Source: an uncultured Flavobacteriaceae bacterium
GTDB taxonomy: Bacteria > Bacteroidota > Bacteroidia > Flavobacteriales > Flavobacteriaceae
Reading direction: 5' to 3'
DNA: 64,000 nucleotides
Assembly (NCBI GenBank): GCA_947494715.1
Contig: CANLWG010000012.1
Location: forward strand, 1-64,000
This document shows, piece by piece, positions 9 through 46,946 of this stretch; position 1 is the first letter of the stretch; each line of letters starts with the position of its first letter. Made by a program: the position numbers and the translations under genes. The notes below the pieces were generated by a model. It made no database searches and was not told where the DNA came from. It saw nothing but the letters and a program-made list of their open reading frames with translations.

Positions 9-31
9 AAAAAAGCCTCTTAAAGAGGCTT
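9..31 (-). terminator. Rho-independent terminator after the STAND nuclease gene
   Basis: On the minus strand an 8-bp stem (AAGCCTCT / AGAGGCTT) with a 3-nt loop is followed directly by a run of T. It lies just downstream of the stop codon of the minus-strand gene ending at 55, so it probably ends that transcript. Confidence 0.75.
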
Positions 32-54: not shown

Positions 55-2487
55 TTATTCCCTTGCGCAACGGTTACTTTTGTTGTGTGCAGTTTTTTCA
101 TGTTCTTCAATTTCAGTCCTGCATTCTTTAGCCTGTTCCTTCCCACCAGGACAGCAATGACCAAATAAGGGACAGCTGCGCTCTTCCATTTCTAAATCGT
201 TCTCTTCTGGAGCATCCTCGGGAATTTTTTCGTTGATAATGCTCATTAGAAATTCCAGTTGTTCGGGTGTTTTGTCTTTATAGTCACCATTTTCGAACTT
301 TTCTTTTACAAAATTTTGGTGTTCAATCCTTTGCGATCTGGTGATTGGAGGTAATGGCATAAATTCTATGCAGTGCTCCCAACTACAGGCTAACATTTGC
401 AAATGTGCAGCATGATTTTTTTTGAAAATGGGTATATATCCCATATGGTATGATATGCCTTTGGTCATGCATAAAGCAGTAACTAAACACTCTTGCCAAA
501 AGTCCATGTTGTTCAAATCGTAGATTAATTCGGTATCGTGAATCTTTCGATCAGGGTTATTATTTTCTTTTATCAAGTCTTTTTCCCAAAGGACATCAAG
601 AATTTTATCACTAGAACTTAAATCTTCGGTTTCATAATCAAAAGGAAAACCATATCTTCTGATAGCCCATAAAGCATCAAGTTCCATATCTGACAACTCG
701 AAAATAAAACCATACTTTTCCTCAATTGAATCGATTTCGTACTGTTGAAATAGCAGGTCACTCCATTTTATCATGTCCTCGTACAAAACACCATCTGGTC
801 CATCCATTCCGGATTGCATTTTCGAAAAGATATAGCTCTCCGCTTTAGTGAGTAATTGCTTTTTAAAATCTAGTGATATTATTGATTGACAAACTGCTCT
901 TATTGAATCATGCATGCTTATTCCAGATTCTTGATGCAGCAAGAGTCTCTTATTTAAAAGGGGGTATAGGGCAGTTTTTGCGTTTAGCAAAGAATCTATT
1001 TGTTCTTCACATTGATCCCAACCAATAGTGCCTTTAAAAATTGATAAGCTAAAAAGATGGTTTCTACTGTTCTCGTCCAAAGTCATTATTGATTTTTCAA
1101 TAATATAATCACGACATTCTTCAATCGATTTTTTGCTTAGTTCCTCTATGGTTTCTTGTACAATCTCGTTTTCCTGATATAAGTCTTTCAGAAAGAAAAT
1201 GGACATAGGATGACCTCCGACCGAATTATGAAACTTTACTACTTGCTTTTTATCAGAGGCATCTGCGAATTCTGATAGTATTGATTGAGTTTCCTCTAAA
1301 GAGAAACCTAATAAATCAAATTCCTCAAAAAGTGACTTTTGTATTTGGGTTCTAGCGATAAAGATGGTTTCAGTAGAACTTAGTACTAGTTTACCCTTAG
1401 AAGATTGCTTTGTTGATAATTCTACAATTTCTTTTACAAATGATTGGATTTCATTACTTCCAGAGTTAAGGCTATCAAAAACGAGTATGAATTCAAAATT
1501 GTTTAGTGAATCAATAATTGATGGGATAATTTCAACTCTTTCGGTTGTATTTACCTTATTAGCAAGAAATGTTTGGTTTGCATTGAATAAAAATGAGGCA
1601 AGAGTGTATTGTATATTGTCAATTGATGTCCACTGATTGATTGAAACCCAGCATGTGTTTTCTAACCTATTAGTTCTAGCAAGTAATTTAATTGTCGTCC
1701 ATGTCTTCCCAATACCGTTTATTCCGTTTAAACTGAGAATTTGTTTTTCTTCAATTTTTTTTGACAGGTGTTCTAGTTCATTTTCTCGTCCAGTGAATTC
1801 GGCTATATCAATTTGTGTTGACCATGGAGAATCTTCTATAGACAAACCAAGTTTTTCAAATTCATCTTTCAACAAAGACATGGTGACCTTTTTACTTTCT
1901 CTGGATAAATCGAAAACGAGTTTCCAGATTGAGTTGTATATAAATAATGTATCTGCTGTATTTATCTTAAATGGATACCGATTTATAAGCTCTATGCATT
2001 GAAGTCGTAAAATCTTAGCCGGGTCCTCATCGTCATCACTAATCCCAAATCTCGTAAGAATCTTTACTCGGTTTAATAAGTCTAGTAATTCGCTATACTT
2101 TTTATTTTCCGGTACTAGTTTGGCCATCAATTCATCTTCTGGAATGGAACCAGAGTTAATGGACTTCTTTAGACTAATTACGTCAGGGTTTCCTGTCCCG
2201 TTTGTAATAAAGACAAATTCGGTTAATCCGTTGTCTTTATCCATGAACTTTGAAAAAATGTCTCGAATATGAGCTGGTGTCCAGTGGTTACCTTCAATTC
2301 TTTTTTTTACTTGGATAAACTCATGACCTGTTTCGCGAAGAATATTAAAATCTTCTTCATCTTCATTCAAGCTTTCAAAAAGAAATTCGGTTGAATTTGA
2401 TTCATTCAGAATTATGAGTTCAAGAATTCGCAGAACACAATAAGTTACTTGATAATCAAATCCTTTTATTCCATCAGTTCCTCCCAT
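55..2487 (-). CDS. STAND-type NTPase with N-terminal DUF4297/Cap4-like nuclease domain (putative anti-phage defence)
   Basis: An 810-aa cytoplasmic protein. The N-terminus has the GG...KGFDYQ signature of DUF4297/Cap4-type PD-(D/E)xK nucleases, with candidate catalytic residues E38, D46 and the QVK at 59-61. A linker FTGREN (231-236) leads into a P-loop: Walker A GINGIGKT (255-262) and Walker B FILVFDS (333-339), as in STAND/NB-ARC NTPases. A winged-helix-like region (about 480-560) and an uncharacterised C-terminal part follow. The tail has a cysteine/histidine cluster (C772, H777, C778, C779, C789, C807) that could bind a metal. The known relatives (Avs-type and other nuclease-STAND proteins) sense phage components and cut DNA. 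Here the TPR-rich sensor of typical Avs proteins is not obvious, so the protein is compact. The gene is a singleton, visibly more AT-rich than the housekeeping genes to its right, which suggests transfer. The defence role is inferred from domains only. Confidence 0.72.
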   Translation of the reverse strand: MGGTDGIKGFDYQVTYCVLRILELIILNESNSTEFLFESLNEDEEDFNILRETGHEFIQVKKRIEGNHWTPAHIRDIFSKFMDKDNGLTEFVFITNGTGNPDVISLKKSINSGSIPEDELMAKLVPENKKYSELLDLLNRVKILTRFGISDDDEDPAKILRLQCIELINRYPFKINTADTLFIYNSIWKLVFDLSRESKKVTMSLLKDEFEKLGLSIEDSPWSTQIDIAEFTGRENELEHLSKKIEEKQILSLNGINGIGKTWTTIKLLARTNRLENTCWVSINQWTSIDNIQYTLASFLFNANQTFLANKVNTTERVEIIPSIIDSLNNFEFILVFDSLNSGSNEIQSFVKEIVELSTKQSSKGKLVLSSTETIFIARTQIQKSLFEEFDLLGFSLEETQSILSEFADASDKKQVVKFHNSVGGHPMSIFFLKDLYQENEIVQETIEELSKKSIEECRDYIIEKSIMTLDENSRNHLFSLSIFKGTIGWDQCEEQIDSLLNAKTALYPLLNKRLLLHQESGISMHDSIRAVCQSIISLDFKKQLLTKAESYIFSKMQSGMDGPDGVLYEDMIKWSDLLFQQYEIDSIEEKYGFIFELSDMELDALWAIRRYGFPFDYETEDLSSSDKILDVLWEKDLIKENNNPDRKIHDTELIYDLNNMDFWQECLVTALCMTKGISYHMGYIPIFKKNHAAHLQMLACSWEHCIEFMPLPPITRSQRIEHQNFVKEKFENGDYKDKTPEQLEFLMSIINEKIPEDAPEENDLEMEERSCPLFGHCCPGGKEQAKECRTEIEEHEKTAHNKSNRCARE

Positions 2488-2603
2488 GTATTTTTAATTG
2501 CGCACAACTTGTTTATATACACACATTTTACGCTTTTATACTGCCAAAATGGTATATAAAAAGGTTCCGGTAATTTTCAGCATACATTGCCATACTACAA
2601 AAC

Positions 2604-7148: not shown

Positions 7149-8387
7149 ATGATTCTAGAAATGAAAGTTCCTTCCCCAGGGGAATCGATTACCGAAGTGG
7201 AAATAGCTGAATGGCTGGTCGAGGATGGTGATTATGTGGAAAAGGACCAGGCTATAGCCGAGGTAGATTCGGACAAGGCCACTTTGGAACTTCCAGCGGA
7301 AGAAAGTGGTACGATTACCTTTAAGGCCGAAGTTGGCGATGCAGTTGCCGTTGGTGAGGTGGTCTGTTTAATCGATACCGATGCCCCCAAGCCCGAAGGA
7401 GCGATGGCCGAAAAAGAATCTGTAAAAGAGGTGCAAAAAGAAACACCTAAAACTGAGGATACACAAGAAAAATCAGCTTCCGAAGAGGTTTCCGAAACTG
7501 CCAAAACCTATGCCACAGGTACACCAAGCCCTGCAGCTAAAAAGATTTTGGATGAGAAAGGGATACCGGCAGCTAGCGTAAAAGGTACGGGCAGGGATGG
7601 CCGGATTACCAAAGAGGACGCGGTTAATGCCGTCCCAGCTATGGGAACTCCTACCGGAGGTAACCGGGGAGAGACCCGGTCCAAGCTTTCTATGTTACGC
7701 CGTAAAGTAGCCGAAAGATTGGTTTCCGCCAAGAACGAGACGGCTATGTTGACCACCTTCAATGAGGTGGATATGACCCCTATTTTTGAATTAAGGAAAA
7801 AGTACAAGGAGGATTTTAAGGAGAAACATGGTGTAAGTCTGGGCTTTATGTCCTTTTTTACCAAGGCATGTGTACGGGCCCTTGAAATGTACCCGGCAGT
7901 AAATTCTATGATAGACGGTAAGGAAATGATTTCCTATGACTTCTGTGATATTAGTATAGCGGTTTCCGGACCAAAAGGGTTAATGGTGCCGGTAATCCGA
8001 AATGCCGAGAATCTAACCTTCAGGGGTGTTGAGGCAGAAGTAAAACGATTGGCCATCCGTGCCCGGGAAGGAGAAATTACCGTAGATGAAATGACCGGAG
8101 GTACCTTTACGATTACCAATGGTGGCGTGTTTGGTTCCATGTTGTCCACGCCGATTATTAATCCACCACAGAGTGCCATTTTAGGGATGCACAATATTGT
8201 GGAGCGACCCATAGTACGAGATGGTGCCATTGCCATTGCCCCGATCATGTACGTTGCGCTTTCCTATGATCATCGTATTATTGATGGCAAGGAATCGGTA
8301 AGCTTTCTGGTGGCCGTAAAGGAAGCCTTGGAAAATCCCGAGGAATTTTTGATGGAGAATAACGTAGAGCGGGCATTGGAAATGTAA
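7149..8387 (+). CDS. sucB: Dihydrolipoyllysine succinyltransferase (E2 of 2-oxoglutarate dehydrogenase)
   Basis: A 412-aa core subunit that transfers succinyl groups from its lipoyl arm to CoA. The order of domains is standard: one lipoyl domain with the modified lysine K43 in EVDSDKATLEL, an acidic flexible linker (about 80-120), a peripheral-subunit-binding domain (TPSPAAKKILDEKGI...GTGRDGRITKED, about 125-160), and the acyltransferase domain with the active-site H375 and D379-G380 in SYDHRIIDG. ITNGGVFGS is also typical. A single lipoyl domain and this length fit SucB rather than pyruvate dehydrogenase E2, and the location next to sucA settles it. The E3 gene is not in the window. Confidence 0.96.
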   Translation: MILEMKVPSPGESITEVEIAEWLVEDGDYVEKDQAIAEVDSDKATLELPAEESGTITFKAEVGDAVAVGEVVCLIDTDAPKPEGAMAEKESVKEVQKETPKTEDTQEKSASEEVSETAKTYATGTPSPAAKKILDEKGIPAASVKGTGRDGRITKEDAVNAVPAMGTPTGGNRGETRSKLSMLRRKVAERLVSAKNETAMLTTFNEVDMTPIFELRKKYKEDFKEKHGVSLGFMSFFTKACVRALEMYPAVNSMIDGKEMISYDFCDISIAVSGPKGLMVPVIRNAENLTFRGVEAEVKRLAIRAREGEITVDEMTGGTFTITNGGVFGSMLSTPIINPPQSAILGMHNIVERPIVRDGAIAIAPIMYVALSYDHRIIDGKESVSFLVAVKEALENPEEFLMENNVERALEM

Positions 8388-8432
8388 TATACCATCGCGG
8401 CGGCGAGTGTAAAGGCGAAGCAACGAATGGAA

Positions 8433-8879
8433 TTATTCTTTCCGCTTCAAATACACGCAACTATTGTTATAGTCTATAATCGCTTTTGCCTTTGTAAGGA
8501 TATCGGCACCGATAATTCCATCTACAGGCAGCGCTTTATGAGTAATCAAGGCTTCATTTACATGAACCAAATCGAACAGCACGATCTTTAGTTTCTTTTT
8601 TTTCCAACTTCCGATTTCAATTTTGTTTTTGGTAGAGATCAAAGTTGCCATATTGGTGGCCCCGGCTCCGGCCGCCTTGACCTTGGACTCCTTGGAGGTC
8701 AATTTAAAAAACTCGATTTTATCAAACCCCACACAGGTATTGGAAGCCCCGGTATCCAGAATAAATCGCCCTATCACTCCATTGATCTTGGCCGAAATCT
8801 CAAAATGATTGGTATCGGTCAAAACTAAAGGAACTTCGATATAATTCTTTTTCTTCAAGAATTTTTTGAGGGATGTCAT
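8433..8879 (-). CDS. Retropepsin-like aspartic protease family protein
   Basis: A 148-aa single-domain protein of clan AA. It has the catalytic signature FILDTGAS, and a later hydrophobic IIGADIL turn that matches the second conserved element of retropepsins. The domain is one monomer half, so an active enzyme would have to dimerise. No signal peptide or membrane segment is evident, which suggests a cytoplasmic location. It converges with sucB and diverges from tatD. Substrates of these bacterial single-domain proteases are mostly unknown. A -7-like box lies 14 nt upstream of the start. Confidence 0.8.
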   Translation of the reverse strand: MTSLKKFLKKKNYIEVPLVLTDTNHFEISAKINGVIGRFILDTGASNTCVGFDKIEFFKLTSKESKVKAAGAGATNMATLISTKNKIEIGSWKKKKLKIVLFDLVHVNEALITHKALPVDGIIGADILTKAKAIIDYNNSCVYLKRKE

Positions 8880-8892
8880 TGCTGCTTTTTGA

Positions 8893-8900
8893 CAAAGATA
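8893..8900 (-). promoter_or_regulatory. Candidate -7 box (TATCTTTG) for the retropepsin gene
   Basis: An exact match to the Bacteroidota TAnnTTTG -7 element on the minus strand, 14 nt upstream of the ATG at 8879. The transcript would have almost no leader. I see no clear -33 TTTG at the usual distance. Confidence 0.35.
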
Positions 8901-8904
8901 AGCC

Positions 8905-8912
8905 TATTTTTG
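8905..8912 (+). promoter_or_regulatory. Candidate -7 box (TATTTTTG) for tatD
   Basis: An exact TAnnTTTG match four bases before the tatD ATG. If used, the mRNA would be leaderless or nearly so. It lies 4 bp from the opposing box for the retropepsin gene. A TTTG at 8888-8891 is only 13 nt upstream, closer than usual for a -33 element. Confidence 0.35.
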
Positions 8913-8916
8913 CCAT

Positions 8917-9684
8917 ATGATTTTGACCGATACACACACCCATCTATACAGTGAGGCTTTTGACCAAGATAGGGACGGGGTTATTCAAAGTGCTTTAGAT
9001 AAGGGAATTGAACGTTTCTTCATTCCCGCAATAGATTCTACCTATACCCAGGCCATGTTGGATTTGGAAAGTGCCTATCCCGAAAACATTTTTTTGATGG
9101 CCGGGCTGCATCCTACCCATGTAAAGGAGGATTATGAAAAGGAATTGCAGCATGTAGAGCAGCAATTGGTCAAACGCAAATTTTATGCAGTCGGTGAAAT
9201 CGGTATAGATTTGTACTGGGACAAGACTTTTTTAAAGCAGCAGCAGGAAGCTTTTCGCATTCAGATCCAGTGGGCAAAAAAATACCGATTACCTATTGTA
9301 ATCCATTGTAGGGAATCTTTTGATGAAATATTTGAAATCTTGGAAGGTGAAAAAAGCGATGATCTATATGGGATTTTCCATTGCTTTACCGGAAGTGTGG
9401 AACAGGCGAAGACTGCCATATCCTATAACATGAAATTGGGTATTGGGGGAGTTGTTACCTTTAAAAATGGAAAAATTGATAGGTTCCTGGATCAAATCGA
9501 TTTAAAGCACATTGTCCTCGAGACGGATTCTCCTTATTTGGCCCCGGCTCCCTATCGCGGCAAACGGAACGAAAGTGCCTATTTGATCAATGTGTTGGAA
9601 AAATTATCCGATGTTTATGGCGTATCAAAGGAGGAAATTGCTAAAATTACTACTGAAAATTCGAAAGAAGTTTTCGGAGTTTAA
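8917..9684 (+). CDS. tatD: TatD-family metal-dependent hydrolase/DNase
   Basis: A 255-aa cytoplasmic TIM-barrel metallohydrolase, the usual family length. It begins with the metal-binding TDTHTHLYS (HxH) and has GEIGIDLYWD with the conserved glutamate, PIVIHCRESFDE, FHCFTGS and the terminal ETDSPYLAPAPYRGKRNE with the metal-ligand aspartate. The family has 3'-5' exonuclease activity on DNA and may also act on D-aminoacyl-tRNA. The ATG directly precedes the conserved first strand, so the start is secure. The asparaginase gene follows 35 nt downstream on the same strand. Confidence 0.92.
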   Translation: MILTDTHTHLYSEAFDQDRDGVIQSALDKGIERFFIPAIDSTYTQAMLDLESAYPENIFLMAGLHPTHVKEDYEKELQHVEQQLVKRKFYAVGEIGIDLYWDKTFLKQQQEAFRIQIQWAKKYRLPIVIHCRESFDEIFEILEGEKSDDLYGIFHCFTGSVEQAKTAISYNMKLGIGGVVTFKNGKIDRFLDQIDLKHIVLETDSPYLAPAPYRGKRNESAYLINVLEKLSDVYGVSKEEIAKITTENSKEVFGV

Positions 9685-37601: not shown

Positions 37602-37714
37602 ACATTCTTCCTCTCCTGACAATTATTAGGACTTCGTTTTAACACTTTTTTTCCTAAGGATTATTTTACTTGATTAAACGTACTATATTTATGTTTTTGA
37701 CGGAAAAAGAAGAA

Positions 37715-38860
37715 ATGCACTATCCAAAAAGCTCTTTTTTAGGGAAAATAATCCTTTTGGCAATGGCATGTCTTCTATTGAGATGTGTGGATCCGGTAGA
37801 TCCGGAGTTTAGATACCAGGAAGGTTTGGTATATATAGATGCCTTGGCAGGTACGGTTGAAGGAGCTTCCTATGTTTCAATTTTGGAATCCACCGAAGAG
37901 TTCGGTATAAATGATAATGTCTTTTTAAGTGGTGCTAAGGTTTCTTTTATCAAAACTGATGATCAAACCCAAGTAGATTTGCAGGAGGAGGGAGAATTGT
38001 ATCTACCTCCCGCTAATTTCAAGGCTCAAGTTGGGGATACTTGGGAACTAAAAGTCGAATTGGCGGATGGCCGGGAGTATAGGTCACTTCCTGAAAAAGT
38101 CTCAACATCGGTTCCTATTCAGGAATTGGATGTAGCCTATGAACCAGAACTCTTGTTCAATGAGGGTTTGGATAAATTTATTCCGGGACATTCCCTTTCG
38201 CTTACTTTGGAAGATCCCGGCGATGAGGAAAACTATTATTATTGGCGTTTTCGCTCTTTTGAGAAATTGATAAACTGTGTTGTCTGCGCTAATTCAATTT
38301 ATAGGAACGGCGAATGCCAGACCAATCCACCGGCCAGCGCATCCCTTCGGAAACCGTATTATACCTATGCTTGCGAATCGGATTGTTGGCAAATTCGGTA
38401 TGAGGACAACATCAACATTTTTTCGGATGAATTCACTGACGGCGCCAAAATCTCAAACTTACCGGTAGCGAATATTCCATTGTTTACCAAAAGAAGTATA
38501 CTGGTAGAACTTCAGCAGTTTTCCATATCCGCCTCGGCATATAGGTACTACAAGACCCTTAAGGATATCGTAGACAATAACTCGGGATTCAATGCCCCTT
38601 TGCCTGCGGCCCTCGTTGGCAATATGTCGAATCCCAATAACGCAAATGAGTTTGTATTAGGCCGATTTACAGCCGCATCTACTGTCATAAAACCTGTTTT
38701 CATAGATCGTACATTTGTGGAAGGGATACCTTTGGAGACCATATTGCCGGGACAGTACGAGGGAGAAGAAGAACCGGTACCGAGACCGGTTGTTGTCTTT
38801 GCCCCCTGTAATGAAAATAGATTCAATACAAGCTCGCGTCCTTTAGGTTGGATAGATTAG
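37715..38860 (+). CDS. DUF4249 lipoprotein (copy 1, without adjacent receptor)
   Basis: A 381-aa outer-membrane lipoprotein. The ATG at 37715 gives a signal peptide ending at lipobox C24 (LLLRC), followed by VDPVDPEF, the hallmark of DUF4249; in-frame upstream starts (ATG 37691, TTG 37670) only add residues in front of the signal. A conserved cluster of five cysteines (C188, C191, C201, C220, C224, the last in ESDCWQIRY) is shared with copies 2 and 3. The C-terminus CNENRFNTSSRPLGWID is also conserved. By analogy with SusD-type proteins it may bind a ligand for a TonB receptor, but no receptor follows this copy; a gap of about 195 bp and copy 2 come next. Confidence 0.82.
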   Translation: MHYPKSSFLGKIILLAMACLLLRCVDPVDPEFRYQEGLVYIDALAGTVEGASYVSILESTEEFGINDNVFLSGAKVSFIKTDDQTQVDLQEEGELYLPPANFKAQVGDTWELKVELADGREYRSLPEKVSTSVPIQELDVAYEPELLFNEGLDKFIPGHSLSLTLEDPGDEENYYYWRFRSFEKLINCVVCANSIYRNGECQTNPPASASLRKPYYTYACESDCWQIRYEDNINIFSDEFTDGAKISNLPVANIPLFTKRSILVELQQFSISASAYRYYKTLKDIVDNNSGFNAPLPAALVGNMSNPNNANEFVLGRFTAASTVIKPVFIDRTFVEGIPLETILPGQYEGEEEPVPRPVVVFAPCNENRFNTSSRPLGWID

Positions 38861-39055
38861 TAAATATGAATATGGAATGGGGTTAGCTCCACTTCTTATA
38901 GTATTTTTACTTTAAAATTTCTCGAATGTTTAAGGTTCCCCGATTGTTTTTATGGATTCTTTTTCCATGGGGGTTTTTTTTTTAGATCAAAACCGGTTTT
39001 TGCTATTGAACATTGTTTTTTTTTGGCATATATTCAAATTCTGGAAATTTCTTAC

Positions 39056-40207
39056 ATGGGTTTAAAATATCTGAAACATAAGGCGCTACTTTTTTCAATT
39101 ATAGCTCTTGCTATACTTAACAACTGTGTTGATCCCATAGAGCCGGATTTTGACTTTAATGAAGGGCTTATTTTTGTAGAAGGCTTTGCGTCCACGGAGC
39201 CTGACGTTTCCTTTGTTATCATTAGCGAATCTGCCATCGAATTCGGCGTATATGTCGTTAACTTTGTGGAAGGAGCCTCGGTGAATTTTGAGAATACAGA
39301 TAATGGGGACATTGTTCCACTGGTTGAACTTCAGGATGCCTATGTGCCACCGGGGGATTTTACCGTGGCCCCTGGAGAAAGTTGGAAACTAAATATACGC
39401 ATGTCAAATGGTAAACAATATACTTCCGAGATAGAAAAAGTATTAAATCCGGTACCGATAACCAACCTAAAAGTACAGTATGATGCGGAATTGGAATTCA
39501 GGGAAATCTTTGGCGGAAGATTTATACCCGGCCATGAGATTTTCGTATCTTTTACCGATCCTCCGGATGCCGGCAATTACTATTATTGGAGCTATCGCAG
39601 CTATGAAAACCTGGATATCTGTGAAAAATGCAGGGAATCTTATTTCCGTGATGATGAATGCCAACCTCTTCCTAGGGGTATTGGTGGTCTTCAACCCTAT
39701 TATGATTATCCTTGTCAAAGTGATTGTTGGCGTATCCGTTTTCCCGAAAGTATTCCAATTTTTGAGGATGAATTTTCCAATGGCAAGACCATAACGGATT
39801 TTTCCATAGGCAATGCCATATTGTACACAAAGGAGGATATGGTAATAGAGGTTCAACAATTCGCGATTTCATCTTCGGCACATGAATATTATAAGGTGCT
39901 TAAAGATCTTGTTGATAATAATAGTGGACTTAATGCACCGCCACCGGCGGGTTTAGTGGGAAATATGTTCAATCCGGCGGATAGCGAAGAGTTTGTTTTT
40001 GGCAGATTCACGGCTGCGGCAACTTCTGAGGCCTCGATTTTTATTGATAGGACATTTATAACCGAGGACGCCCTGGAGACTCGAGAGGAATTAATTTTAG
40101 AACCGGGCTTTGGCAGTCCACTACCTCCCCCTGCAACTTTCTCGGCAGCTTGTAGCGAAACCAGATTTAGAACAGCTATTCGCCCGGAAGCTTGGATCGA
40201 CCAATGA
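39056..40207 (+). CDS. DUF4249 lipoprotein (copy 2)
   Basis: A 383-aa outer-membrane lipoprotein. The ATG at 39056 gives a signal with lipobox C24 (ILNNC) and the VDPIEPDF hallmark; a TTG 33 nt upstream is in frame but unlikely. The cysteine cluster is C189, C192, C202, C220, C224 with QSDCWRIRF. The C-terminus CSETRFRTAIRPEAWID matches the other copies. A TonB-dependent receptor starts 19 nt after its stop, so the pair is an operon and probably works as lipoprotein plus receptor. Confidence 0.85.
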   Translation: MGLKYLKHKALLFSIIALAILNNCVDPIEPDFDFNEGLIFVEGFASTEPDVSFVIISESAIEFGVYVVNFVEGASVNFENTDNGDIVPLVELQDAYVPPGDFTVAPGESWKLNIRMSNGKQYTSEIEKVLNPVPITNLKVQYDAELEFREIFGGRFIPGHEIFVSFTDPPDAGNYYYWSYRSYENLDICEKCRESYFRDDECQPLPRGIGGLQPYYDYPCQSDCWRIRFPESIPIFEDEFSNGKTITDFSIGNAILYTKEDMVIEVQQFAISSSAHEYYKVLKDLVDNNSGLNAPPPAGLVGNMFNPADSEEFVFGRFTAAATSEASIFIDRTFITEDALETREELILEPGFGSPLPPPATFSAACSETRFRTAIRPEAWIDQ

Positions 40208-40226
40208 TACCAAACCAAAACTTAAT

Positions 40227-42638
40227 ATGTCCATAAAACCACAATTTCTACTAACATTCTTTTTTTCTATATGCATAGCTTCATTTGTTAGGTCGCAGGA
40301 GTATGCCATGTCTTTTGAAGTCTTGGCCCAGGCAACAGGATTGCCTTTGGACAATGCCCAGATTTCGATTAGGCCTTGTAATTGTGGGGGGATCACCACT
40401 TCAGGAAGGTTTTCCATTACTCTTCCAGGAAACACATATGAAGTTACAGTTTCCTTTATAGGTTTTAAAGATGACATCCAGACTGTTATACTTGATCAAA
40501 GTCGGATTCTAAAAGTACAATTGTACGAAGAGGAAGAACAACTTTCTGAAGTGGTGGTTCGGGCCAAACGGATATTGGACAATATTGAAACCCCTCAAAT
40601 GGGAGCGTTGAAGTTAACTTCCCAAGAATTAAAAAAGATACCGGCAGCCGTTGGTGAGTTTGATGTGTTGCGAGGCATGACACTTTTGGCCGGAGTTAAC
40701 AATGCCGGTGAGATAAGCAATGGGATATCCGTACGGGGAGGGTCTTTGGACCAGAATTTGGTGTTATACGACTATGCCCCGGTTTTTAATCCCACTCATT
40801 TATTCGGGCTTTTTTCAGTTTTTACACCGGATGCCATTTCTTCCGTAGACTTGTATAGGGCCAATATCCCGGCCCGCTATGGGGGACGGTCTACCTCGGT
40901 ACTGGATATTAAGGTCAAAAACCCCTATACGGATAAGTTTAAGTTGAGTGGGGGTGTAGGTATTGTATCGAGCCGGTTATCATTGGAAACGCCTATTATC
41001 AAAGACAAGTTGCTACTCAATATTGGAGGCCGGGCCGGATTTACCGATTTTTTATTACCACTATTTTCAGAACGATTGGAAGATACCAAGGCCAATTTTT
41101 ATGATGGCACCATGAAGCTGTTATTCCTCCCCACAGAGAACGATCAGATTTCCTTTACAGGATTTTATAGTAAGGACTTTTACCAGTTGGATTTAATTAC
41201 GCAAATAGAGAATATTAACGCGAGTAGTAATCAATATGATTTCAAGACCTTGAACGGAACACTCAATTGGATACATACATTTGGGGACGAGTCCAATCTG
41301 AGGAACATTTTTGTTATAAGCGACTATACACCAAAGACTATCTTTCCAGAAAGGGATAGCGATAATGAAATTGAATTTGAATCCAAGATCAATTATCTGA
41401 GTTTTATTTCCGAGTACTCCAAGAGAGTGAACGATAAGCTGGAATATTATGGAGGTATCCAGGCCAATAGATATACTATAGAACCAGGAAATTTGGATCC
41501 GGGGTCTGGGAATAGCATTATCCCCGTTACTTTGGAATCAGAAACGAGCTATGAATTTGCCGGCTTTGGCAATGTCAATTGGAATGCAACCGAGGATTTG
41601 ACTATTTCCGCCGGACTACGCTTCAATCATTTTGTGTTTGTAGGGCCTTATACGCAGGCTACTTTCGATGAAACCTCCGGGGCTTTATTGAATACTCAAT
41701 TTTTTGAGAAAGGTGCCGGTGTAAAGACCTATAATGGCCTGGACCCCAGACTAGGCATTAATTATAAGTTGGGGGAAACAATGTCGCTAAAGGCCAGCTA
41801 TGCCAGGCTAAACCAATACCTTCAAAATATTTACAACACAACTACCCCTTTGCCAACTTCCCGTTGGAAAACTGCAGACCCGAACATTGAACCCCAGCAA
41901 AGCGATAGTTACGGTCTCGGAATTTATAAGAACCTGGAGGAAAGTGGCATAGAAATAGGATTGGAAGGCTACTATAGAAAGTCAAAAAATAATCTGACCT
42001 ATAAACCTGGAGCCGATTTCTTCCTGGAGGAATTTTTGGAAAGGGATGTGGTCCAGGCGGAAGGGGAGGCCTATGGTATGGAACTCAGTTTTAAGAAACC
42101 CAAAGGAAAGTTCAATGGCTGGTTCAATTATACCTGGTCCCGTAGTTTTTTGCGTTCTTTTAATGAAAGATTGGCAGATCGAGTGAACAATAACCAACAG
42201 TTTCCTTCAGACTTTGATAGGCCTCATGTATTCAACGGCACCATTAATTTTGAAGGGGATAAGTACAACACATGGAGCTTTAATTTTACGGCCCAAAGTG
42301 GAAGACCCTATACCGTGGCCAATAGTGTTTTTGCCTTGGAGGATATTAATGTGCCCATTTTTTTGGAAAGGAACAATGCACGCTTGCGACCCTATCATCG
42401 CTTGGACTTCTCATGGAAAGTGAAGTATGGAAGAAACCCCAATAGAAGATGGGTGGGGGATTGGACGTTTACCATTTACAATGTATATAGCCGAAGGAAC
42501 CCTTTGAACCTTTATTATGCGCAGAGGCAGGATGGCGTGGATGCGGACGTATTCTTAGGCAGCCCTTTGGGTACGTATGAACTTTCCGTACTCAACAGCC
42601 CATTGTTTGCTGTTACCTACAATTTTGTCTTCGATTAG
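40227..42638 (+). CDS. TonB-dependent receptor paired with DUF4249 (copy A, CxCGG)
   Basis: An 803-aa outer-membrane receptor. The ATG at 40227 begins a signal peptide ending SFVRSQ; frames can be extended upstream into the DUF4249 gene but that is not credible. An N-terminal carboxypeptidase-like domain (about 28-105) holds the unusual motif CNCGG at 51-55. The plug has VLRGMTLLAGVNNAGEISNG and ISVRGGSLDQNLVLYDYAP; the barrel ends FAVTYNFVFD. It is very similar to copy B at 44529 along its whole length. With ExbB/ExbD/TonB it would import a ligand bound by the lipoprotein encoded directly upstream. Ligand unknown. Confidence 0.9.
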   Translation: MSIKPQFLLTFFFSICIASFVRSQEYAMSFEVLAQATGLPLDNAQISIRPCNCGGITTSGRFSITLPGNTYEVTVSFIGFKDDIQTVILDQSRILKVQLYEEEEQLSEVVVRAKRILDNIETPQMGALKLTSQELKKIPAAVGEFDVLRGMTLLAGVNNAGEISNGISVRGGSLDQNLVLYDYAPVFNPTHLFGLFSVFTPDAISSVDLYRANIPARYGGRSTSVLDIKVKNPYTDKFKLSGGVGIVSSRLSLETPIIKDKLLLNIGGRAGFTDFLLPLFSERLEDTKANFYDGTMKLLFLPTENDQISFTGFYSKDFYQLDLITQIENINASSNQYDFKTLNGTLNWIHTFGDESNLRNIFVISDYTPKTIFPERDSDNEIEFESKINYLSFISEYSKRVNDKLEYYGGIQANRYTIEPGNLDPGSGNSIIPVTLESETSYEFAGFGNVNWNATEDLTISAGLRFNHFVFVGPYTQATFDETSGALLNTQFFEKGAGVKTYNGLDPRLGINYKLGETMSLKASYARLNQYLQNIYNTTTPLPTSRWKTADPNIEPQQSDSYGLGIYKNLEESGIEIGLEGYYRKSKNNLTYKPGADFFLEEFLERDVVQAEGEAYGMELSFKKPKGKFNGWFNYTWSRSFLRSFNERLADRVNNNQQFPSDFDRPHVFNGTINFEGDKYNTWSFNFTAQSGRPYTVANSVFALEDINVPIFLERNNARLRPYHRLDFSWKVKYGRNPNRRWVGDWTFTIYNVYSRRNPLNLYYAQRQDGVDADVFLGSPLGTYELSVLNSPLFAVTYNFVFD

Positions 42639-42649
42639 ATGTAAACAAA

Positions 42650-42979
42650 TTATTGTTTGTAGAACTTCGTACTAACTTTTTGCTCCAGTGAATTTATGAT
42701 GATCATATATACCCCTTTTTCAAGATGTGCAACGGGTATACTTAATGCATTGTTCTTAATTTTCCACTGGTGCTGCAGTACCGAATTCCCGTAAATATCC
42801 GAAATCAAGATATTTGCTCGAGCACTATTTTCAAGACCTAAAACATTGATTACATTGGTCGCTGGATTGGGGAATAGTTTTATTTTGGGTTGAACAGCAA
42901 TTTGTTCGGGATTCCCTTCCTGGGAATGACCCAATGCCATTGCAAAGAACAAGCTAAGTATAAGGAGGAGTTTTTTCAT
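42650..42979 (-). CDS. Small protein consisting of a T9SS type A sorting domain
   Basis: A 109-aa protein. Signal peptide (MKKLLLILSLFFAMALGHSQ), about 12 residues, then a complete type A C-terminal sorting domain (KLFPNPATNVINVLGLEN ... ANILISDIYGNSVLQ ... LSIPVAHLEKGVYMIII ... KFYKQ). Normally this domain follows a large cargo; here there is none. The ATG at 42979 is used; a TTG 57 nt upstream adds no signal. It could be a remnant of a secreted protein, a decoy or a surface-anchored peptide. It lies between the two DUF4249/receptor pairs on the opposite strand. Confidence 0.8.
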   Translation of the reverse strand: MKKLLLILSLFFAMALGHSQEGNPEQIAVQPKIKLFPNPATNVINVLGLENSARANILISDIYGNSVLQHQWKIKNNALSIPVAHLEKGVYMIIINSLEQKVSTKFYKQ

Positions 42980-43327
42980 AGCCGGTGTATCCTTAAATAC
43001 GGGATTAAAAATATTCCAGCCCGCCCTGTTCCACAAAACATTGTTGTGAAAATGGCTTTTTTAATGGTTCAAAAAAAATAATTAACGCATGTTAACAGTT
43101 TGGATATACTGTTAATGGGCCTCCAGCTAATTGTTTCCTTCGCCCAATTCCACATCCTAAGGTGTGCTAAGTTCAAAAGTATTTTTCATTTTGGGCTCAG
43201 TGATTGTTTTTATACAACTTGGATTTATCCATTATGATAACTCAGATATTACCTGTTGTGTTAAATTTTTAATTCTAAGATTTTTTAAATTATTATCATT
43301 AGTTTCAGTAGAATTAATAATTCGGCA
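42980..43327. other. 348-bp divergent intergenic region
   Basis: Separates the T9SS-domain gene (minus) from DUF4249 copy 3 (plus). It is AT-rich. A minus-strand TACTTTTG (43174-43181) matches the -7 consensus but has no -33 partner. I see no ORF, RNA or convincing terminator here. Confidence 0.5.
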
Positions 43328-44506
43328 ATGAACAAAAAAGTTTATTCCCTTTCAATAAGATATTTGCAGTACATTTTTTTAGCGTCCTTGATTGGTTGTG
43401 TAGATCCTATTGAGCCTGAATTTGAATTTAAGGAGGGAACAGTATATGTAGATGCATTCGTATCCACCTCTTTGGGAGCTTCTTCAGTGGTTATCTCCGA
43501 ATGGGTACTTGAATCGGATGAGCTTGCCAATGAATTCATCAGTGGGGCAAATGTTTTGTTTAGGAATGCCGACACTAATCTTGAAGTAATGCTAACCGAA
43601 CAGGAAGGCGCATACCTACCTCCTGAAGATTTTGCCGCTTCCGTAGGTGATTTATGGGAGCTTTTAATTACCTTACCTAGTGGAAAACAGTACCGTTCCT
43701 TGCCAGAGGAAGTGACCAGGCCAGTAGACTTTTCGAATATTAGGGCAACGTATAATCCACAGTTGACGTTTAGGGAAAGTTCCAACACCTTTATCCCCGG
43801 TCATTCTATTTCTATTGATGTCAACGATCCAACAGATGAGGAAAATTTTTATTATTGGAGGTTCCGTTCATACGAAAAGATAAGGATTTGTGAAACATGT
43901 TTTAATAGTGTTCTGAGGAACGGGAAATGTGAGGAAAATGAATCATATCAAAATCCTCCTTCAACCGGTTACGAGTTCGATTATTTATGTGAAACGGCAG
44001 ACTGTTGGCAAATACGTTACACAGAGAACATAAAAATATTCTCCGATGAATTCACGAATGGCACTATCCTTAATGCCTTGCCCGTAGCAGACGTAATTTT
44101 GTACACCAAAACAAATATTCTCGTAGAGGTACAACAGTTTTCCCTGTCTGCTCCAGCGTATGAGTATTATAGGATTTTAAAGGATATTGTAGAAAACAAC
44201 GGCAGTTTTAATGCCCCGCCTCCTGCGGCATTGATTGGCAACTTGTTTAACCCCGATGACGATCAAGAATTTGTTTTGGGTAGGTTTACAGTCGCCTCTA
44301 CAACAATGCGATCTATATTCATTGAACGCTCAAATATTCCTGAAAACCCCATAGATCCGGAGTCCCTTGCACAGTTAGAGTGTTGCGGCCTTGGATGTAT
44401 TCCTTTGCCACTAGTGCCTGGAGTTGGTTGTATTGCCGTTAACTTTACTACTTGTGAGGAAACTCGGTTTAGAACATCTAATATGCCTGAGGGCTGGGTG
44501 GAATGA
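43328..44506 (+). CDS. DUF4249 lipoprotein (copy 3)
   Basis: A 392-aa outer-membrane lipoprotein with lipobox C24 (ASLIGC) and VDPIEPEF. The cysteine cluster is C188, C191, C201, C221, C226 with ETADCWQIRY. It differs from the other copies by an extra cysteine-containing loop near the C-terminus (LECCGLGCIPLPLVPGVGC) before the shared CEETRFRTSNMPEGW. A TonB receptor starts 22 nt after its stop. Same probable role as copy 2, perhaps with a different ligand. Confidence 0.86.
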   Translation: MNKKVYSLSIRYLQYIFLASLIGCVDPIEPEFEFKEGTVYVDAFVSTSLGASSVVISEWVLESDELANEFISGANVLFRNADTNLEVMLTEQEGAYLPPEDFAASVGDLWELLITLPSGKQYRSLPEEVTRPVDFSNIRATYNPQLTFRESSNTFIPGHSISIDVNDPTDEENFYYWRFRSYEKIRICETCFNSVLRNGKCEENESYQNPPSTGYEFDYLCETADCWQIRYTENIKIFSDEFTNGTILNALPVADVILYTKTNILVEVQQFSLSAPAYEYYRILKDIVENNGSFNAPPPAALIGNLFNPDDDQEFVLGRFTVASTTMRSIFIERSNIPENPIDPESLAQLECCGLGCIPLPLVPGVGCIAVNFTTCEETRFRTSNMPEGWVE

Positions 44507-44528
44507 ACTGTTGAAAAAGCATTTTTGT

Positions 44529-46946
44529 ATGACGACAACTCGTATTTTTTTTATGTTGCTTTCGATGTTGTTCATCAACTGGTCCAGCGCACAAATTTCT
44601 GAATATGAGCTATCCCTTAAAGTAATAGATCAAAGAACCGATAGTCCTCTTGAAAATGCACAAATTTTCATCAGTCCATGTAAGTGTGGAGGTGTTACGG
44701 ATAATAATGGTTTCTTCTCGATGAAACTTCCTGAAAACACCTATGCCATAAATGTTTCCTACATCGGATTTAGGGAGTACTCCGAACAAACCGTGCTGGA
44801 TAGTGATATTATGATAGAAGTGGTTCTTTCCGAAAAAGAAGAACAGTTGTCCGAGGTTGTGGTCAGGGCCAAAAAGGTCAATGAGAATATTGAGTCTCCA
44901 CAAATGGGCGTATTGCGATTGGATGCAGAGGAGATAAAAAAATTACCGGCCGCGTTGGGGGAATTGGATGTACTGAGGGGAATGACCTTATTGGCAGGAG
45001 TGAACAACGCTGGAGACATCAGCAATGGACTTTCGGTAAGGGGCGGATCCCTTGATCAAAACCTTTTGCTTTACGATTATGCACCGGTTTTTAATCCTAC
45101 ACATCTGTTCGGTCTTTTTTCCGTTTTCACACCGGACATGTTATCTTCCGTAGACTTGTACAGGGCCAATATTCCATCACGTTATGGGGGCAGGGTAGCC
45201 TCCGTACTGGATGTCAAGGTAAAAAACCCATATACCGATAAATTTAAATTAAGCGGTGGTATCGGTTTGGTATCCAGTAGGTTATTGATAGAAACACCAA
45301 TTGTTAAGGATAAATTGATGTTGATTGCAGGCGCTAGAGCCGGATTTACGGATTTCTTGCTTCCTATTTTCTCGGAAAGGCTTAAAAACACCAAGGCCAA
45401 ATTTGGAGATACAACGTTAAAGTTATTGTATTTGCCTACAGAAAGAGATCAGCTTTCTTTTACTGGTTTTTATAGTAAGGATTTTTATCAATTGGATCTC
45501 ATTACACGAATAGAGAACGTTAATGCGGAAAACAATCAGTACGATTTTGGGATTTTGAACGGAACATTAAATTGGACCCATTCCTTTAATGATAAATCCC
45601 ATCTAAGAACCGTAGTGGTGGGGAGCAATTACAACCCAAAGATTCTATTTACAGAATTTGAGAGCGATAATGAGATAGAATATGGGTCAAGAATCAATTA
45701 TCTGAGTTTTATATCCGAGTTTTCCAAAGAGATCAGTGGAGACATTGATTATTATGCAGGAGTGCAGGCCACACAATACAAGATTCATCCCGGTAGCTTG
45801 GATCCCGGCACATCCAATATTCTTCCAGTCTCTTTAGCTACAGAAACCAGTTATGAGCTATCCGGGTTTGCCAATGCCAACTGGCGACCAATTGATAATC
45901 TGTCATTGTCCGCTGGGTTACGTTACAATCATTTTGCATTCGTAGGACCTTATGAGCTTACCAAATATGACGAAACCGATGGTACGGTAATAGGCACTGA
46001 AATTTTTGAAAAGGGAGATAGCGTGAAGTCATATGACGGAATAGAACCTAGATTGGGCGTTTCGCTTAAAGCGGGTGAGAACACTTCATTCAAAGCAAGT
46101 TATGCTAGGATAAACCAATATCTGCAAAATGTATATAACAGTACAACGCCCTTGCCAACTTCACGATGGAAGACCGCCGATCCAAATATTAGCCCTCAAA
46201 TTGGTAATACCTATGGTCTGGGTTTCTATCAAAATATCAATGATAATACTATTGAAATAGGCATAGAAGGCTATTACAGGGATACAAGGAATGTATTGAC
46301 CTATAAACCCGGTGCGGATTTTTTTCTTGAAGAGTTTCTTGAACAAGATGTAGTCCAGGGTCAAGGACAAGCCTATGGTGCTGAACTTAGTTTTAAGAAA
46401 CCCAACGGAAAAATCAATGGATGGTTCAATTACACATGGTCAAAAAGCAGGCTCCGGTCAGTAAATGAGAATTTGGGGGATAGGATAAACAACAACCAAT
46501 GGTTTGCATCTGATTTTGACAGGCCTCATGTTTTTAATGGCACTGTCAATTTAGAACACAACAAGTATAGTACTTTGAGCTTTAATTTTACGGCCCAATC
46601 AGGTAGGCCCTATACCGTTGCCAATGGATTTGTCACTATAGAGGAAATAGCGGTGCCTGTTTTTTTAGAGCGCAACAACGGCCGCCTTCCTGTTTACCAT
46701 AGGTTGGATTTATCCTGGAATATTCATTTTAGTAAAAGCAAGGAAAACAAGCGTTGGATAAATGATTGGACATTTACTATCTATAATCTTTATGGGCGTA
46801 ACAACCCCTTTAATATTTATTACTCCCAACGAGGGAACAATGTTAGGGATAATACCAATTTTGGAAGCAGCCCTTTAGGCACATATCAACTTTCTGTACT
46901 TAATAGTCCCTTATTTTCGTTGACCTATAATTTTAAATTTCAATAG
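44529..46946 (+). CDS. TonB-dependent receptor paired with DUF4249 (copy B, CxCGG)
   Basis: An 805-aa outer-membrane receptor homologous end to end with copy A. Signal peptide ends NWSSAQ; the ATG at 44529 is chosen over an upstream frame that overlaps the lipoprotein gene. CKCGG is again at 51-55 in the carboxypeptidase-like domain. The plug keeps VLRGMTLLAGVNNAGDISNG and LSVRGGSLDQNLLLYDYAP; the barrel ends SLTYNFKFQ. The gene ends one base before the end of polA, which runs in the opposite direction. Confidence 0.9.
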   Translation: MTTTRIFFMLLSMLFINWSSAQISEYELSLKVIDQRTDSPLENAQIFISPCKCGGVTDNNGFFSMKLPENTYAINVSYIGFREYSEQTVLDSDIMIEVVLSEKEEQLSEVVVRAKKVNENIESPQMGVLRLDAEEIKKLPAALGELDVLRGMTLLAGVNNAGDISNGLSVRGGSLDQNLLLYDYAPVFNPTHLFGLFSVFTPDMLSSVDLYRANIPSRYGGRVASVLDVKVKNPYTDKFKLSGGIGLVSSRLLIETPIVKDKLMLIAGARAGFTDFLLPIFSERLKNTKAKFGDTTLKLLYLPTERDQLSFTGFYSKDFYQLDLITRIENVNAENNQYDFGILNGTLNWTHSFNDKSHLRTVVVGSNYNPKILFTEFESDNEIEYGSRINYLSFISEFSKEISGDIDYYAGVQATQYKIHPGSLDPGTSNILPVSLATETSYELSGFANANWRPIDNLSLSAGLRYNHFAFVGPYELTKYDETDGTVIGTEIFEKGDSVKSYDGIEPRLGVSLKAGENTSFKASYARINQYLQNVYNSTTPLPTSRWKTADPNISPQIGNTYGLGFYQNINDNTIEIGIEGYYRDTRNVLTYKPGADFFLEEFLEQDVVQGQGQAYGAELSFKKPNGKINGWFNYTWSKSRLRSVNENLGDRINNNQWFASDFDRPHVFNGTVNLEHNKYSTLSFNFTAQSGRPYTVANGFVTIEEIAVPVFLERNNGRLPVYHRLDLSWNIHFSKSKENKRWINDWTFTIYNLYGRNNPFNIYYSQRGNNVRDNTNFGSSPLGTYQLSVLNSPLFSLTYNFKFQ

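What the first reader, a model, noticed from the sequence alone, without database searches (positions are those of the whole stretch)
55..2487. Compact nuclease-STAND protein as a candidate anti-phage defence system
Seen: DUF4297/Cap4-like N-terminus (GG...KGFDYQ, E38, D46, QVK 59-61), a STAND-type P-loop (GINGIGKT, FILVFDS) and a C-terminal region without obvious TPR sensor, ending in a Cys/His cluster. Known: fusions of such nucleases to STAND NTPases (Avs group) detect phage proteins and degrade DNA. Inference: the short C-terminus with a CPxFGHCCPGG-type metal-binding motif would be a different kind of sensor. The gene is AT-rich, solitary and has its own terminator, as expected of a mobile defence gene.
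Basis: partly seen in the sequence, partly recalled or inferred. Interest (0 to 1): 0.75.

Follow-up and report, generated by a model that had tools for sequence, protein, structure and literature searches.

The report
Cassette-borne nuclease–NLR gene cut by IS
A bacterial gene that looks like an infection alarm fused to a DNA-cutting enzyme lies in what appears to be a movable integron gene cassette, and an insertion sequence that seems to seek out cassette junctions has landed on its downstream end.

Summary
The gene is real: window 55-2487, minus strand, 810 aa, intact. Its N-terminus passes Pfam's cut-off for the Cap4/DUF4297 nuclease. The middle carries P-loop, Walker B, GxP and MHD-type motifs of an NB-ARC/STAND switch, but Pfam scores there fall just below cut-off. 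PADLOC gave no Avs match and I found no full-length relative, so function is inferred; anti-phage defence through an induced nuclease is the likeliest role.

The context is the new part. The window starts at a contig end that is one end of an IS1182-family element; the 'own terminator' and the last residues belong to it. The gene lies between two matching recombination boxes like those of an integron cassette. The same genome has an integrase directly before such a cassette, and relatives have intact arrays. Two sister species lack the gene. Close relatives of the IS sit, by eye, at one position in attC-like sites in five genera.

I rate this a new variant of a known kind, with an attC-targeting IS1182 lineage as a side finding.

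The parts
55..2487 (-). ORF of the candidate protein, 810 aa, intact
   Evidence: no internal stop (row G000)
2263..2484 (-). Cap4/DUF4297 nuclease match, with E38, D46, Q59-V60-K61
1702..1725 (-). P-loop GINGIGKT (aa 255-262)
   Evidence: NB-ARC 21.4 bits and nSTAND6 27.6 bits, both just under cut-off; hhalign Prob 84.5
1471..1491 (-). Walker B FILVFDS (aa 333-339)
1207..1218 (-). GGHP (aa 424-427), read as the GxP motif of STAND NTPases (motif recalled)
907..915 (-). MHD (aa 525-527), at the place of the NB-ARC MHD motif (motif recalled)
94..810 (-). C-terminal region (aa 560-798) without any detected relative; putative sensor
142..174 (-). CPLFGHCCPGG (aa 772-782)
   Evidence: a 33-residue query found two matches at E 6-7 in unrelated genes
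2499..2508 (-). start box R' GTTGTGCGCA; its first base is 21 nt before the ATG
82..91 (-). end box R'' TGCACACAAC, 9 of 10 complementary to the start box
78..81 (-). 4-nt spacer AAAA next to the IS; AAAA also follows the other IS end on contigs C35 and C13
1..77 (.). end of an IS1182-family element (contig end; 74-77 bp shared with five other contig ends)
13..31 (.). terminator hairpin, inside the IS sequence
   Evidence: the three G023 IS copies printed also have a hairpin right after the transposase stop

Best explanation
The gene came in as a single-gene integron cassette and codes an NLR-like defence protein: an N-terminal Cap4-type DNA endonuclease, a central NB-ARC/STAND ATPase, and a compact C-terminal region that would sense the trigger. 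By analogy with Avs3, trigger binding would let the ATPase part bring nuclease domains together, which then cut DNA and stop the infected cell. Shown: intact ORF, Cap4 match, NTPase motifs, matching boxes at both ends, an integrase before such a cassette in the same genome, absence from two sister species, an IS1182 end beside the 3' box. Inferred: nuclease activity, trigger, defence. Because the IS splits the 3' site, the integrase can probably no longer excise this cassette (inference).
For: Cap4_nuclease above cut-off (34.0 bits with the first 225 residues alone). PADLOC LmuA, a Cap4-type effector by recall, 25.7 bits. Residues 226-353 match two NB-ARC proteins, hhalign Prob 84.5, E 7e-6 (both pass NB-ARC). 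Own start and end boxes pair at 9, 10, 10 and 8 of 10 positions in the four cassettes whose two ends I could read, cross pairs 5-8, one tie (C35 start with C12 end); the boxes were picked by eye, chance of 6 or more of 7 beyond the anchor is 0.0013. Integrase on C24 above the cut-off of NF040815 'tyrosine recombinase/integron integrase' (238.5/220), directly before one such cassette. Relative G011: integrase followed by co-oriented ORFs with attC sites between. G001 and G002 have no match to the candidate anywhere and a serine hydrolase gene in its place. Defence genes in integron cassettes are reported (PMC12444791, passages). In G011, of 10 array ORFs tested, one matches a PADLOC model strongly (PDC-S31, 188 bits) and one weakly (TmtA, 22.4 bits).
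Against: No experiment. STAND scores are under Pfam's cut-offs. The Cap4 match covers about 70 of 200 positions, and a small alignment of eight Cap4 proteins gave only Prob 18.9 (E 0.0012). No Avs model among PADLOC matches at E up to 1 (that the library holds Avs models is recalled). No homologues, so no conservation argument. Cap4 matches at all are rare: 11 of 299 family genomes, the own one included, and the three long ones I read differ. Defence genes were few among cassettes in Xanthomonas, 1.8% of orthologous genes (PMC12444791, passage). The boxes deviate from the GTTRRRY rule of classical integrons (rule recalled). The integrase is below the cut-off of TIGR02249 'integron integrase' (199/265). 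Upstream of the candidate I saw no integrase ORF and no clear attI. No intact attC is claimed in the own genome.
Confidence: 0.6

Rival explanations
1. A silent or decaying cassette gene: captured by the integron, now frozen by the IS, without a promoter or present function.
For: The start box begins 21 nt before the ATG, so any promoter lies in the 116-nt gap to the next gene or beyond (gap); the IS has altered the C-terminus; most cassettes of large integrons are said to be unexpressed (PMC11023631, start of abstract in a search listing).
Against: 810 codons without a stop and the catalytic motifs kept.
Confidence: 0.2
2. A nuclease-NTPase guarding against plasmids or other mobile DNA rather than phages.
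For: The LmuA match; Lamassu-type systems act on plasmids as well as phages (recalled).
Against: No SMC-like partner beside it by reading: the neighbouring ORFs are an outer-membrane-type protein and a 2-oxoglutarate dehydrogenase E1 protein (names by recall).
Confidence: 0.1
3. A STAND-type regulator, not a nuclease effector.
For: Weak match to the MalT model (22.1 bits).
Against: That model's cut-off is 537 bits; the N-terminus has the Cap4 residues and passes the Cap4 cut-off, and no helix-turn-helix family was listed at E up to 1.
Confidence: 0.05

Closest known systems
Avs3-type antiviral STAND proteins (AVAST type 3)
   Same: N-terminal nuclease, central STAND ATPase, C-terminal sensor in one protein; dimerisation of the nuclease domain as activation (PMC12198126, passages; tripartite layout in PMC10907252, passages)
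   Different: 810 aa, no TPR family and no Avs model listed at E up to 1; C-terminal region without relatives found
HerA-DUF4297 and Lamassu LmuA (Cap4-type nucleases)
   Same: Cap4-type nuclease domain (DUF4297 as Cap4-like: PMC12198126, passages)
   Different: In HerA-DUF4297 the ATPase is a separate protein, in Lamassu too (recalled); here an NTPase is fused
Chromosomal integron cassette arrays as defence libraries (Vibrio)
   Same: Genes between attC sites, some of them defence genes (PMC12444791, passages)
   Different: Flavobacteriaceae host (nearest OdhA relatives), integrase in the same direction as the cassettes, divergent boxes, cassette-like ends at several chromosomal places
IS1111-attC insertion sequences
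   Same: IS that target integron attC sites (PMC11187229, passages)
   Different: Here an IS1182-family element, inserted next to the R'' box with about 4 nt between

Membership tests
Cap4/DUF4297 nuclease (PF14130) | Score over the curated cut-off | tested here: met
   32.6 against 26.2 bits, over 2-69 of 200 profile positions only
Cap4/DUF4297 nuclease (PF14130) | Catalytic E, D and QxK residues (pattern recalled) | tested here: met
   E38, D46, Q59-V60-K61 read in the sequence; the same region aligned with Cap4 proteins, Prob 18.9
Cap4/DUF4297 nuclease (PF14130) | DNA cleavage | not testable with these tools
   needs purified protein
NB-ARC/STAND NTPase | P-loop, Walker B, GxP, MHD in order (recalled) | tested here: met
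   positions 255, 333, 424, 525
NB-ARC/STAND NTPase | Pfam score over the curated cut-off | tested here: inconclusive
   NB-ARC 21.4/23.5, nSTAND6 27.6/27.7; hhalign Prob 84.5
Avs (antiviral STAND) | Match to a catalogued Avs model | tested here: not met
   PADLOC at E up to 1 gave only LmuA and an endonuclease effector; not filed as an Avs member
Avs (antiviral STAND) | C-terminal TPR-like sensor | tested here: inconclusive
   no TPR family listed at E up to 1; structure model uninformative
Avs (antiviral STAND) | Recognition of a phage protein, protection against phage | not testable with these tools
   needs plating assays
Integron gene cassette | Matching recombination boxes at both ends | tested here: met
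   9 of 10; this start box pairs with the other three end boxes at 6-7 of 10
Integron gene cassette | Integron integrase in the genome next to such cassettes | tested here: met
   C24 (NF040815 passed, TIGR02249 not); attC sites after the integrase in G011 and G034
Integron gene cassette | Complete attC at the 3' end | tested here: not met
   split by the IS; the rest would be on another contig. I therefore call it a former cassette, not an intact one
Integron gene cassette | Excision or integration by the integrase | not testable with these tools
   needs a recombination assay

The most novel reading that the evidence does not exclude
Flavobacteria of this family carry dispersed integron arrays with a divergent attC type that stock defence genes, among them NLR-like nucleases with sensors of unknown kind such as this one; and an IS1182 lineage lives by inserting into those attC sites, which freezes single cassettes in place and can supply them with a stop codon and a terminator.
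Probability: 0.35. Interest if true: 0.72.

Novelty: new variant of a known kind. Interest (0 to 1): 0.55.

Why it matters
Integrons have recently been reported to store phage defence genes in Vibrio and on mobile integrons (cited in PMC12444791). This locus suggests the same in Flavobacteriaceae, with a compact NLR-like nuclease for which I found no close kin. An IS lineage that marks attC sites would also be a handle for finding arrays that standard attC models may miss, and a way by which cassettes become fixed.

Tried and rejected
Homologue searches for the candidate failed: peptide scans of viral contigs and genome contigs, which reach close relatives only; tblastn in phages and plasmids; and 60 relatives, 397 family and 395 phylum genomes, overlapping sets that include the own genome, with local hits in 1, 2 and 3 other genomes. 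Those in G048 and G123 are NB-ARC proteins (TPR over cut-off in G123 only) without a Cap4 hit; the G323 hit is an ABC transporter by reading. The three phylum hits, among them the lowest E-value (G773, 1.1e-5), were not followed.

AlphaFold without an alignment: mean pLDDT 35.8, so no fold search was made. Three long Cap4 proteins of the family (G012, G122, G086; 1093, 1090 and 1316 aa) differ by reading.

First idea rejected: that the contig-end repeat was a repeated cassette. The copy on C2 showed it to be IS1182.

Scans for intact attC in the own genome gave no usable result. Loose settings: window 16 found against 20.7 expected; the other own stretches 0-9 against 0.7-4.0, above chance in some (L010 9 against 2.7, L033 5 against 0.7), output partly cut. 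Second scan at its stricter threshold: window 1, L008 1, L030 3, the other own stretches 0. Intact attC in the own genome are not claimed; the evidence there is IS-split halves.

Full report
OBSERVATION. The ORF at 55-2487 (minus strand, 810 aa) is intact. Pfam gives Cap4_nuclease above its cut-off for residues 2-74, nSTAND6 and NB-ARC just under theirs. Two further motifs fit an NB-ARC-like switch: GGHP at 424 and MHD at 525 (their meaning is recalled). A profile of two NB-ARC proteins aligns with residues 226-353 (Prob 84.5).

HOST. 

THE CONTIG END. The window is the start of contig C12 of its genome. Its first 74-77 bp occur at six contig ends, this one included, always pointing outward. 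A second sequence of about 77 bp occurs at seven contig ends (96-100% identity) and once inside contig C2 (88%). On C2 it lies before an IS1182-family transposase (NF033551 130.9 bits on a fragment, under the cut-off of 270). The C2 copy has the second sequence at one end and the sequence TTGTGCAACGGTTAC, like that of the first, at the other, so the two repeats are the two ends of one multi-copy IS at which the assembly breaks. The hairpin at window 13-31 and codons 805-810 with the stop lie in the IS.

THE CASSETTE. Beside the IS in C12 stands TGCACACAAC plus 4 nt; GTTGTGCGCA begins 21 nt before the ATG. The same layout occurs on C24, C38 and C35, each with its own sequence: own boxes pair at 8-10 of 10, cross pairs at 5-8 (boxes picked by eye). 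On C24 a 375-aa tyrosine recombinase directly precedes such a cassette; it passes the model NF040815 and falls below the cut-off of TIGR02249. The far sides of the IS copies carry what reads by eye as the rest of attC sites: 6 of 8 right flanks (C38, C35, C20, C23, C13, C3), C2 less clearly, C6 not. Integrase relatives at 54-59% identity occur in 7 of the 60 genomes searched, own included (G007, G001, G034, G023, G011, G019, G042). In G011 the integrase is followed by co-oriented ORFs with attC sites between them: 13 hits of the attC scan on the plus strand, some nested and some inside ORFs, against 0-4 in five Markov shuffles; the minus strand gave 9, expected in part because attC are near-palindromes. 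G034 shows four sites on the integrase strand; at that threshold the other 17 stretches scanned gave 0-3 each.

AT THIS LOCUS. In sister species G002 and G001 the outer-membrane-type and OdhA genes are conserved, but a serine hydrolase gene (363/364 aa; name by recall) stands where the candidate is, and the candidate has no match elsewhere in either. In G002 the two genes after that hydrolase resemble two on contig C35 here, by reading, which fits the join C12-IS-C35, with AAAA on both sides of the IS. C13 also begins with AAAA, so the join is likely, not proven. G002 has what reads as a decayed attC further along. The candidate is a recent gain here, or was lost in both sisters. I saw no attI-like sequence or integrase ORF upstream of it; insertion away from the main array is the simplest reading.

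THE IS AND attC. The transposase has matches in 6 of 60 genomes. Of the 21 matches I examined the flanks of 16; the five dropped are partial or carry stops. In all 9 copies of G023 the 5' flank ends in an attC-like arm (TATAGC[CT][AT][AT]T or TATAC[AT][AT]T). In G029, G003, two of G021 and C2 of G000 the 3' flank is 4 nt followed by GTT (four) or ATT (G029) and the rest of a box; the 5' flanks of the two G021 copies also end in such arms. So all 14 copies of the closer lineage (64% identity or more) with a readable end sit, by eye, at one position of an attC-like site, in five genera including the window's. The two more distant copies (51-52%; G000 C27, G002) show no such 5' arm by eye; their 3' ends were not found. 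The G000 contig-end copies agree: AAC 4 nt before the IS in 5 of 6 left flanks, AAT in one. Against: the 3' ends of the G023 copies were not found by my pattern; in the three printed, two run into a sequence before an IS110-type gene and one reads GTT a few bases further out. The target 4-mers of the two ends match for only some G000 flanks. Known attC-targeting IS are of the IS1111 group (PMC11187229, passages). Searches for IS1182 with attC (four papers, titles and abstract starts seen, none on this) and for attC-targeting IS terms (seven papers, listing seen) showed no IS1182 case; the library lacks most subscription journals.

FUNCTION. The layout effector-STAND-sensor is that of antiviral STAND proteins (PMC10907252, passages), and dimerisation of the N-terminal nuclease through the STAND part is the reported activation of Avs3 (PMC12198126, passages). 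I propose the same logic here. It is not an Avs member by PADLOC matches. The sensor is unknown. The Cys stretch could bind metal; that is a guess from the residues.

LIMITS. No homologues, no usable structure model, no experiment. Integrons in this phylum are not new in themselves: two papers list Bacteroidota (PMC8618304 and PMC9668308, one passage each).

Noticed in passing
contig ends C12, C38, C26, C24, C35, C5, C20, C23, C13, C3, C6 of G000; L066, L103-L123: An IS1182 lineage sits, by eye, at one position inside attC-like sites in five genera; two more distant copies show no such site.
   Followed up: partly
L066:12810-13775: An IS110-type transposase gene (by reading) lies beside IS1182 copies near the integrase of G023, so two unrelated IS kinds may use the same sites.
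   Followed up: no
L068:6599-7417 and 7420-9411: In the G011 array an ORF matches PADLOC PDC-S31 strongly (188 bits) and the next ORF TmtA weakly.
   Followed up: no
L009:3738-3860 (C26): A sequence resembling the stretch between integrase and first cassette on C24 stands before a serine-hydrolase-like gene; no integrase ORF of 70 aa or more was seen before it.
   Followed up: no
window 37670-46946: Three DUF4249 genes, two of them overlapped by TonB-receptor genes: repeated surface-uptake pairs.
   Followed up: no
L011:7193-8032: A short-chain-dehydrogenase-like gene near the C5 IS copy appears as two ORFs in a row.
   Followed up: no
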